Source of the DNA: Kaistia defluvii
GTDB lineage: Bacteria; Pseudomonadota; Alphaproteobacteria; Rhizobiales; Kaistiaceae
Direction of reading: 5' to 3'
Assembly: GCF_026343955.1 (NCBI RefSeq)
Contig: NZ_JAPKNI010000001.1
Location: 496,001-560,000 of the forward strand
Length of the DNA stretch: 64,000 nt
The first letter of the stretch is position 1. Each line of letters starts with the position of its first letter. Under the pieces are notes generated by a model, which worked only from the letters and a program-made list of their open reading frames with translations, had not been told where the DNA came from and made no database searches. This document shows positions 55,565-57,667 of this stretch, piece by piece. Made by a program: the position numbers and the translations under genes.

Positions 55565-57667
55565 TCAGTAAGGCGAGTCGATGGATCCCAGATTGACGTA
55601 GACGCTCTTCAGCTGGGTGTAGTGCTCGAGCGCCGCCTTGGAGTTTTCGCGACCGAGGCCGGATTGCTTGAAGCCGCCGAAGGGCAGTTCGATCGGCGTG
55701 ACGTTGTAGTGGTTGATCCAGCAGGTGCCGGCCTGCAGCCGCGCGATGACCCGGTGCCCGCGCGCCAGATCGCGGGTGAAGACGCCGGCTGCCAGGCCGA
55801 AGGGCGTGTCGTTGGCCCGCGCGATCGCCTCGTCCTCGTCGCGGAACGACAGCACCGCCATGACCGGCCCGAAGATCTCCTCGCGCACGATCGTCATGTC
55901 GTCGGCGCAGCCATCGAAGATCGTCGGCGCGACGAAGGCGCCCTTCGAAAGCGCGCCATCGACGACGCGGTGGCCGCCGGTCAAGAGCCTGGCGCCCTCG
56001 GCCTTGCCGCGCTCGATATAGCCGAGCACCTTCTGCATGTGCGCTTCCGAGATCAGCGCGCCGACCTGGGTTCGCGGATCGAGCGGGTCGCCGACGATCA
56101 TCCGGTTGGTGCGGGCGACGAGCTTTTCCAGAAACGCCTCGCGCACGCTTTCCTGCACAAAGACGCGGGTGCCGTTGGAGCATACCTCGCCGGCCGAATA
56201 GAAATTGGCAAGCAGCGCACCGGAAACGGCATCGTCGAGATTGGCGTCGTCGAACACTAGCAGGGGCGACTTGCCGCCCAGTTCCAGCGTCACCTGCTTC
56301 AGCGTCTCGGCTGCGTCCGCCATTACCTTCTTGCCGGTGCCGACCTCGCCGGTCAGCGAGATCTTGGCGATATCGGGATGGCGCGTGAGCAGCCGTCCGG
56401 TCTCGGCAAAGCCCTGCACCACGTTGAAGACGCCGTCCGGAACGCCGGCTTCGGTCATGATCTCCGCCAGCTTCACCGCCGTCAGCGGCGTCAGCTCGGC
56501 CGGCTTGAAGATCATCGCATTGCCGGCGGCGAGCGCGGGGGCCGCCTTCCAGCAGGCGATCTGCAGCGGATAGTTCCAGGCGCCGATGCCCGCGGCGATG
56601 CCGAGCGGCTCGCGGCGCGTATAGCCGAACGCTTCGGGCCCGAGATCGACATGCTCGCCGGTGATGGCGCCCGCCAGGCCGGCGAAATAGTCGATGCAAT
56701 CCGCGCCGGAAAGCACGTCGACAACGGAGGTTTCCTGGATCGGCTTGCCGGTATCGAGCGTCTCCAGCCGCGCCAGTTCGTCGTTGCGCTCGCGCAGGAG
56801 GCTGGCGACGCGCTTCAGGATCTGCCCGCGCTGGCTGCCGGTCATCGCCGCCCAGATCTTCTGGCCACGCCGCGCGCTTTCCACCGCCGCCTCGATCTCG
56901 GCCGGACCGGAGATCTCGATTTCGGCGAGGGTCTCGCCGGTTGCCGGATTGATCGTGGCGAAGCTGCGCGCATCGACGACCGGATGGGCGCGGCCGTCGA
57001 TGTGATTGCGGATGGCATGGTTGCGGCCACCCTGGCTCGTCGGCGGCTCGGCGATCGCGGCGCGCGGCCGGACGGCCGCCAGTTGCGCATCGACGAAGGC
57101 GGTGGCGATGGCGCGCGCCCCGGCGCCATGCGGCTCGCCTTCGGCCGCCAGAGTCTCGCGTAGCCAGAGCCCGTCGATCACCGCCGCGATGGCGATCGCA
57201 ATCGACTGCGCCTCGCGCGCCGGCACGATCTGCTTCAGGCCATGGCGCAGATTGGAGAGCATGCGGCGCTGATAGACGTTCTGCACGCGCTTGAAGCGGG
57301 CCGAATGGATCACCTGGCCCCAGAAGGCCAGCCACACGCTGGCGGTGCGGCGGTCGAACTCCTCCGGCGCCAGATTGGCGTCGATGACGGCCTGGATCCG
57401 CTCGCGCGGCGTGCGCGCCTGCGCCAGCCGGATCGACACCAGACGGGCGAGCCGGCCGGCGAGATGGCGCAGCGTTGCCTCCAGCAGGCCTTCCTTGTCG
57501 CCGAAATAATGCGCGACCAGCCCGGGCGAGACGCCGGCGCGGCGGGAAATATCCATCAGCGTACAGGCGGCGAAACCGACATCGGCGAGCGATTCGATCG
57601 TCGCCTCGATCAGCTGCCGTCTCCGGACGTCCTCGGCTTCGATCCGGACGAAACCGGCCTCACGCAT
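55565..57667 (-). CDS. betIB: BetI-BetB fusion: TetR repressor joined to betaine aldehyde dehydrogenase
   Basis: One uninterrupted 700-codon frame. Residues 1-200 are a full-length BetI repressor: helix-turn-helix [20 protein letters not shown] at 36-55 and the BetI ligand domain with [15 protein letters not shown] and [14 protein letters not shown] short linker rich in Ala and Pro (about 201-216) leads into a complete BetB of 484 residues, with N365, K388, Glu462 (LELGGK) and the catalytic Cys496 (GEVCSNGTR), ending [15 protein letters not shown]. BetB oxidises betaine aldehyde to glycine betaine with NAD+. BetI normally represses bet genes and is released by choline. No ATG, GTG or TTG occurs in frame between codon 163 and codon 262. 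A sequencing indel that joined two genes cannot be excluded. Confidence 0.85.

What the first reader, a model, noticed from the sequence alone, without database searches (positions are those of the whole stretch)
55565..57667. BetI repressor fused in frame to betaine aldehyde dehydrogenase BetB
A complete TetR-type BetI (about 200 residues) runs through a 16-residue Ala/Pro linker into a complete BetB (484 residues) without a stop. No ATG, GTG or TTG lies in frame from codon 164 to codon 261, so BetB has no normal separate start. All known catalytic residues (N365, K388, E462, C496) and the helix-turn-helix are intact. The expected arrangement is two separate genes. A fused repressor and dehydrogenase would be an autoregulated enzyme that could sense choline with one part and aldehyde or NAD with the other, similar in logic to PutA. 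One caution: an out-of-frame ATG with AGGGTGG eight bases upstream lies exactly at the junction (57018-57016, minus strand), and one extra base there would restore a separate BetB start. However, BetI would then still lack a nearby stop.
Basis: partly seen in the sequence, partly recalled or inferred. Interest (0 to 1): 0.88.

Follow-up and report, generated by a model that had tools for sequence, protein, structure and literature searches.

The report
Choline repressor fused to its enzyme
In Kaistia and many related bacteria, the protein that switches choline genes off is joined to the enzyme that finishes making glycine betaine, and in some Kaistia the enzyme half seems to have lost its active site but stays attached to the switch.

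Summary
The fusion is real. One 700-residue frame (57667-55565, minus) holds a BetI and a BetB that each pass NCBIfam's cut-off, a 16-residue low-confidence linker and all four catalytic residues. It is no isolate: 56 gathered loci (53 without exact duplicates) carry both in one open frame, 47 as separate neighbours. Fused BetIs form one clade (99/95; three rows left out). BetI-type palindromes lie upstream in 53 of 53 fused loci; 42 of 53 face choXWV genes.

In G013 it is missing there and the enzyme half is intact. In G006 (K. granuli), G010, G001 and fragmentary G008 the enzyme half has lost N365, C496 and a segment near 440-460, yet the frame stays open. The three with a whole BetI keep 46 of 46 near-invariant BetI residues and two palindromes. 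In the genus BetI was found only fused. So repression seems not to need catalysis; a PutA-like sensing link is not shown. No paper on it turned up in an open-licence library. New variant, untested at the bench.

The parts
55565..57667 (-). betI-betB fused gene, 700 aa, ATG start to stop
57068..57646 (-). BetI repressor half, residues 8-200
   Evidence: TIGR03384 214.9 bits over residues 8-196, cut-off 201.3; TetR_C_6 87-196
57476..57613 (-). TetR_N DNA-binding domain, residues 19-64
   Evidence: Pfam PF00440
57020..57067 (-). linker, residues 201-216, low confidence in the model
   Evidence: pLDDT under 50 at 201-216; variable in length and sequence among relatives
55568..57010 (-). BetB betaine aldehyde dehydrogenase half, residues 220-700
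   Evidence: TIGR01804 698.1 bits, cut-off 668.6; N365, K388, E462, C496
56885..57178 (-). stretch without in-frame ATG, GTG or TTG, codons 164-261
57715..57730 (.). proximal BetI-type palindrome (1 mismatch to TTGAAYRNNYRTTCAA)
57825..57840 (.). distal BetI-type palindrome (2 mismatches), 110 bp from the proximal one
53778..55448 (-). betA choline dehydrogenase, downstream on the same strand
   Evidence: TIGR01810 836.9 bits, cut-off 732.1
58023..58973 (+). choX choline-binding protein, divergent
   Evidence: TIGR03414 470.1 bits, cut-off 379.05
59090..59941 (+). choW choline ABC permease
   Evidence: TIGR03416 426.3 bits, cut-off 363
59943..61121 (+). choV choline ABC ATPase
   Evidence: TIGR03415 537.1 bits, cut-off 483.75

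Best explanation
One polypeptide with two jobs. The N-terminal BetI half binds palindromes between the fused gene and the divergent choXWV operon and represses both directions; choline lifts the repression (inferred from BetI in other bacteria). The C-terminal BetB half then oxidises the betaine aldehyde that BetA makes, so repressor and enzyme are always produced one to one and the gene controls itself. The fusion most simply arose once, from adjacent betI and betB genes. In a Kaistia clade without betA beside the locus, the enzyme half has lost its active site, but it is still carried, in frame, by a repressor that is still kept next to choXWV. Shown by sequence: the fusion, its conservation, the palindromes, the decay. 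Inferred: repression, choline response, enzyme activity, one-to-one coupling, loss of activity in the decayed forms.
For: Open frame and family membership of both halves. 56 fused, 47 separate-neighbour and 43 other loci among 146 with a dehydrogenase match. Fused BetIs are one clade, 99/95, in all of 200 bootstrap trees. No in-frame start in codons 164-261 of the window gene, and 10 of 47 fused rows have no ATG/GTG/TTG in the aligned region 180-245. Of 24 neighbourhoods examined, 23 have at least one divergent cho gene or choV nearby and 18 have betA. Palindrome with at most 2 mismatches in 53 of 53 fused upstream regions; dinucleotide shuffles gave about 0.55 per set of 53. Decayed forms: 46 of 46 near-invariant BetI residues kept in the three with a whole BetI, against 102-147 of 227 in the enzyme half of the four, and no stop in any. 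In the genus every BetI found at E 1e-20 (6 of 14 genomes) sits in a fused frame, and the same 6 genomes hold ChoX.
Against: No expression, binding or activity data. Unusual starts (CTG, ATC) lie in codons 196-258, and 37 of 47 fused rows have at least one in-frame ATG, GTG or TTG in aligned 180-245, so a second, shorter product cannot be excluded. The palindrome was defined after looking at these sequences. One metagenome-bin relative inside the fused clade (L069) has the genes split. The dehydrogenase tree needs 4 changes of state against 2 in the BetI tree built the same way; a single fused clade is not rejected there after dropping five rows (p-AU 0.77).
Confidence: 0.8

Rival explanations
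1. Sequencing or assembly error joins two genes that are separate in the cell.
Against: The same open frame is in other assemblies of the genus, one of them a single 5.35 Mb contig (G010), and in species of other families.
Confidence: 0.01
2. The gene is fused but the cell makes a separate BetB as well, by an internal start or by cutting the flexible linker; the two halves work apart.
For: Linker is low-confidence (pLDDT under 50 at 201-216) and fast-evolving (pairwise linker dN/dS 0.33-1.38). 37 of 47 fused rows have an in-frame ATG, GTG or TTG in aligned 180-245.
Against: 10 of 47 fused rows, the window's among them, have none there; some relatives lack the usual N-terminal dozen residues of BetB. 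If BetB were separable, the decayed half in Kaistia could have been cut off by a stop, yet 4 of 4 keep it open and no BetI-only gene was found in the genus.
Confidence: 0.15
3. PutA-like trigger enzyme: the dehydrogenase half reads aldehyde or NAD and passes the signal to the DNA-binding half.
For: Repressor and pathway enzyme in one chain, conserved across a clade; same logic as PutA (recalled).
Against: In three Kaistia genomes the catalytic residues are gone while the whole BetI half and two palindromes are kept, so repression there cannot depend on turnover. BetI already has its own C-terminal domain (TetR_C_6).
Confidence: 0.2
4. The enzyme half serves the repressor as an oligomerisation scaffold, letting one tetramer hold two operators; this is why a decayed half is retained.
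For: Two or more palindromes upstream in 41 of 53 fused against 3 of 46 separate loci; among loci with cho genes divergent, 32 of 42 against 3 of 19. Spacing 109-111 bp in six Kaistia loci. BetB enzymes are tetramers (recalled).
Against: The fused loci are one clade, so the contrast is not a set of independent events. Two of the three separate loci with two boxes (L073, L142) are the clade's near sisters. The 43 spacings show no helical phasing (R 0.10).
Confidence: 0.3

Closest known systems
BetI and BetB as separate neighbouring genes (e.g. Pseudomonas, Halomonas, Thalassospira loci)
   Same: Same two families, same order, same pathway, BetI-type palindromes upstream (at most 2 mismatches in 43 of 46).
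   Different: Separate genes with a stop between; one palindrome in 40 of 46; betI about 35-44% identical to the window's in these groups.
PutA (proline utilisation A; recalled)
   Same: A transcriptional repressor and a dehydrogenase of one pathway in one polypeptide.
   Different: PutA has a ribbon-helix-helix domain and proline dehydrogenase plus P5C dehydrogenase; here a TetR-type repressor with its own C-terminal domain and one dehydrogenase. No link between enzyme state and DNA binding is shown.
Two BetIs of Ruegeria pomeroyi (PMC12442346; passages read)
   Same: Choline-responsive BetI repressors of Alphaproteobacteria with palindromic boxes; one BetI pair of boxes lies in a divergent intergenic region.
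   Different: BetI and BetB are separate proteins there; in the main text 'fused' does not occur and 'fusion' occurs twice, for fusion PCR.
Pseudoenzymes (general class; recalled)
   Same: The K. granuli enzyme half is modelled with the dehydrogenase fold outside the lost segments but lacks catalytic residues.
   Different: Still evolving fast (branch dN/dS 0.41-0.78), so it may be a drifting tail, not a settled new function.

Membership tests
BetI (TIGR03384) | Score over the curated cut-off of 201.3 | tested here: met
   214.9 bits for the window's residues 1-201
BetI (TIGR03384) | BetI-type palindromic operator by its own promoter | tested here: inconclusive
   Two sites present in the intergenic region, but the motif was chosen after seeing the sequences and binding was not tested
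BetI (TIGR03384) | Choline-responsive repression | not testable with these tools
   needs gel shifts and reporter assays
BetB (TIGR01804) | Score over the curated cut-off of 668.6 | tested here: met
   698.1 bits
BetB (TIGR01804) | Catalytic Asn, Lys, Glu, Cys | tested here: met
   N365, K388, E462, C496, invariant in 43 active-type rows; the roles of the residues are recalled
BetB (TIGR01804), for K. granuli and kin | Score over cut-off and catalytic residues | tested here: not met
   L055 394.4, L012 377.8, L013 237.7 bits (L014 not scored); Asn and Cys lost in 4 of 4
BetI (TIGR03384), for K. granuli and kin | Score over the cut-off of 201.3 | tested here: inconclusive
   G006 212.9 and G010 210.1 pass, G001 198.0 falls just under; all three pass NF001978's 118
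PutA | Ribbon-helix-helix domain plus proline dehydrogenase domain | tested here: not met
   Pfam at E 0.001 finds only TetR_N, TetR_C_6 and Aldedh
Trigger enzyme (enzyme that also controls genes) | Both activities shown in one protein | not testable with these tools
   sequence evidence only

The most novel reading that the evidence does not exclude
The dehydrogenase half has become a structural part of the repressor: a tetrameric body that pairs two BetI dimers and lets one molecule hold the two operators between betIB and choXWV.
Probability: 0.3. Interest if true: 0.75.

Novelty: new variant of a known kind. Interest (0 to 1): 0.62.

Why it matters
Repressors fused to the metabolic enzyme they control are rare (recall), and the searches showed me none for BetI and BetB. 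This one is conserved across a clade with one simplest origin, so it is not an accident. The Kaistia series (betA beside the gene; betA missing there with the enzyme half intact; enzyme half decayed) is a natural experiment: it separates what the repressor needs from what the enzyme needs, and can be tested directly with stop codons and point mutants. It also warns annotators: the one public record with gene calls that I opened labels such a fusion simply betB, hiding the regulator.

Tried and rejected
Sequencing error or isolated frame: rejected by the same open frame in other assemblies and families. Separate BetB start at the out-of-frame ATG 57018: opens only 58 codons. Domain swap as the cause of the divergent enzyme half in K. 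granuli and kin: considered first, rejected because for three of the four (L011, L012, L014) the nearest enzyme half among the 47 fused rows is a Kaistia one (L012's nearest is L011, itself decayed), and the alignment shows loss of active-site segments; L013's is too diverged to place (44% at best). Many independent decays: my first reading from the quick BetI tree; the careful BetI tree (88/95) and the choXWV tree (100/100) group the three placed decayed forms, so one loss followed by drift is simplest; G008 is not placed. A five-protein tree of the six Kaistia alone has no outgroup and cannot place G013 on either side; its place rests on 82/80. Helical phasing of operator pairs: none. Remnants of betA, the ETF genes or the Fe-S gene beside the Kaistia loci L121, L122, L123, L125, L126: none at E 0.01; the first run printed no control, so I repeated it with L124 as a positive control, which rang for all of them. 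Structure models were monomers from 33 sequences; they cannot test a tetramer, and the fold of the decayed half may be carried over from active relatives in the alignment. Further literature searches gave nothing on the fusion.

Full report
Observation. The minus-strand frame 57667-55565 is 700 codons long with no stop. Pfam places TetR_N at 19-64, TetR_C_6 at 87-196 and Aldedh at 234-689. The BetI half alone scores 214.9 bits against the TIGR03384 cut-off of 201.3; the whole protein scores 698.1 against the betaine-aldehyde dehydrogenase TIGR01804 cut-off of 668.6. In-frame ATG/GTG/TTG stop at codon 163 and resume at 262; the out-of-frame ATG at 57018 opens 58 codons.

Surroundings. Downstream on the same strand is betA (TIGR01810, 836.9 bits, over its cut-off); divergent upstream are choX, choW and choV, each over its cut-off.

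Is it isolated? No. In the genus set of 14 genomes, 6 have a match over both halves in one open frame (G000, G004, G013, G006, G010, G001); G008 has the enzyme half and 30 residues of BetI, cut by a contig end. The BetI model finds a match at E 1e-20 in those 6 and in no other of the 14, each time inside the fused frame; the same 6 hold the choline-binding protein ChoX. In a draw of 397 genomes of the order, at least 17 (5 of them Kaistia, the window's own included) have a match from residue 10 or before to residue 655 or beyond with no stop, and 128 have any match at E 1e-160; in a draw of 385 of the class, 3, the window's own included (read from the rows). Over the loci gathered by then, with 18 repeat or flank loci left out beforehand, 146 had a dehydrogenase match: 56 fused, 47 with BetI as a separate neighbour, and 43 with no BetI on that strand; these 43 include other aldehyde dehydrogenases, repeats, and G008's L014 because its BetI is cut. 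Three of the 56 are exact duplicates. Fused loci come from Kaistiaceae, Xanthobacteraceae, Pleomorphomonadaceae, Aurantimonadaceae, Afifellaceae, Acetobacteraceae, Caulobacteraceae, Sphingomonadaceae and from metagenome bins labelled Gammaproteobacteria or Proteobacteria. The search that brought many of them used the fused protein as query and kept the best 80, so these counts are not frequencies.

Origin. After removing exact duplicates and one short row (L074), 52 fused and 46 separate pairs went into trees. In the quick BetI tree the fused rows form one clade with one split member, L069. In the careful BetI tree, built without L069, L075 and L164, the 52 fused rows are one side of a branch against 43 others, support 99/95, in all of 200 bootstrap trees. 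The quick dehydrogenase tree needs 4 changes; without five rows (L011, L012, L013, L061, L069) it needs 2 and a single fused clade is not rejected, p-AU 0.77. One origin is the simplest reading. The near sisters L142 and L073 have betI stop and betB start overlapping as ATGA (junctions).

Is it one protein? In 10 of 47 aligned fused rows, the window's among them, no ATG, GTG or TTG lies in the aligned region 180-245; the other 37 have at least one. Some relatives lack the usual N-terminal dozen residues of BetB. The linker is low-confidence in the model (pLDDT under 50 at 201-216; so are 1-8, 339-351, 654-676 and 682-686; mean 81.6, pTM 0.66) and evolves fast. A second product by an internal start or by cutting cannot be excluded from sequence.

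Operators. A palindrome TTGAAYRNNYRTTCAA, written after looking at these loci, occurs with at most 2 mismatches within 450 bases upstream in 53 of 53 fused loci; dinucleotide shuffles of the same regions gave about 0.55 per set of 53. The window has two, 57715-57730 and 57825-57840, and the other five Kaistia loci with a whole BetI have two, 109-111 bp apart. It resembles the ATTGACG*CGTCAAT box footprinted for BetI1 of Ruegeria pomeroyi (PMC12442346, passages read). The window genome holds 4 such sites at one mismatch or less, against 1 for the reversed control.

The enzyme half decays in one Kaistia group. In G006, G010, G001 and G008 the dehydrogenase half has lost N365 and C496 and much of the segment around 439-459; in the alignment K388 stays only in G006, and E462 only in G006 and G008. 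Among 227 near-invariant columns of 43 active-type rows (two pairs of which are the same contigs), these four keep 147, 127, 102 and 139, and 53 are lost in all four; the three with a whole BetI keep 46 of 46 near-invariant BetI residues. BADH scores are 394.4, 377.8 and 237.7 for the three scored (G008's was not scored), and no gene of these four genomes, the fusion included, matches the BADH model at E 1e-150. Branch estimates of dN/dS are 0.41-0.78 for the dehydrogenase half of the four and 0.10-0.23 for BetI of the three (by three-point sums from the pairwise values). Yet none has a stop. In simulations of neutral change on the G013 sequence a stop-free frame remained in 28.5%, 7.7%, 1.7%, 0.5% and 0% of 600 runs at 0.05, 0.1, 0.2, 0.3 and 0.5 changes per site; the branch dN values are 0.225-0.574. 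Taking dN as the neutral distance is my assumption, and the lineages share part of their history, so this is support for a kept frame, not proof.

Order of events. betA over its family cut-off exists only in G000 and G004 of the 14 and lies beside the fusion there. In the neighbourhoods taken for G013, G006, G010 and G001 no betA was found, nor a remnant at E 0.01, with G004's as positive control; G008's contig shows none either but is only 7 kb. G013 still has an intact enzyme half (694 bits). A choXWV tree with outgroups gives ((window, G004), (G013, (G010, (G006, G001)))), the three decayed forms at 100/100 and G013 with them at 82/80. The simplest story is loss of betA beside the gene, then loss of the active site, with the frame kept. 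Whether other enzymes still oxidise choline or betaine aldehyde in these species is unknown; each of the 14 genomes has GMC oxidoreductases matching the betA model below its cut-off.

What it does. Best reading: an autoregulated repressor-enzyme. The decayed forms show that the BetI half is maintained without catalysis, which argues against a PutA-like need for turnover. Why the decayed half is not cut off is open. One idea is that it holds the repressor together: two or more palindromes occur in 41 of 53 fused against 3 of 46 separate loci, and among loci with cho genes divergent in 32 of 42 against 3 of 19. Against it: the fused loci are one clade, two of the three separate loci with two boxes (L073, L142) are its sisters, and 43 spacings show no helical phase (R 0.10). 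The model of the K. granuli form keeps an aldehyde dehydrogenase fold (best PDB hit 6wsa, a betaine aldehyde dehydrogenase; mean pLDDT 81.2, pTM 0.61), but its alignment is mostly active relatives.

Known or new. Searches of the open-licence PMC library for BetI with fusion, gene fusion, TetR fused to aldehyde dehydrogenase, crystal structures, and choXWV gave no paper on this fusion (listings seen; PMC12442346 and PMC4744692: passages seen; PMC5343134: passages seen, no BetI). Subscription journals and preprints are not covered. A RefSeq plasmid record of Komagataeibacter saccharivorans annotates such a fusion as one CDS named betB. I rate it a new variant of a known kind, repressor-enzyme fusion.

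Noticed in passing
window 49695-53668: Beyond betA lie a 695-aa frame that I read as an Fe-S oxidoreductase (recalled label; no NCBIfam match at E 1e-30) and ETF alpha and beta subunits (matches below family cut-offs), which look like later steps of betaine breakdown (recall). None is found beside the Kaistia loci that lack betA.
   Followed up: partly
G000:C1:627305-627320 (L166): One further BetI-like palindrome (1 mismatch) lies about 70 bases upstream of another aldehyde dehydrogenase match (C1:625843-627234); chance is possible, since the reversed pattern also hits once in the genome.
   Followed up: no
L073, L142 (near separate relatives): In these sisters of the fused clade, betI and betB are separate genes whose stop and start overlap as ATGA (junctions printed), an arrangement from which a fusion could arise by a change of frame.
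   Followed up: no
L056, L057, L059 (Gluconacetobacter) and L169 (Komagataeibacter saccharivorans plasmid): Acetic acid bacteria carry the fusion; the Gluconacetobacter BetI halves sit on a long branch (2.38), and the Komagataeibacter copy is on a plasmid.
   Followed up: no
window 61125-63816: A frame that I read as an M24-type peptidase (recalled label; no NCBIfam match at E 1e-30) and an NtaA/DmoA family FMN monooxygenase (TIGR03860) keep their place next to choV in the five longer Kaistia neighbourhoods taken, L121-L125.
   Followed up: no
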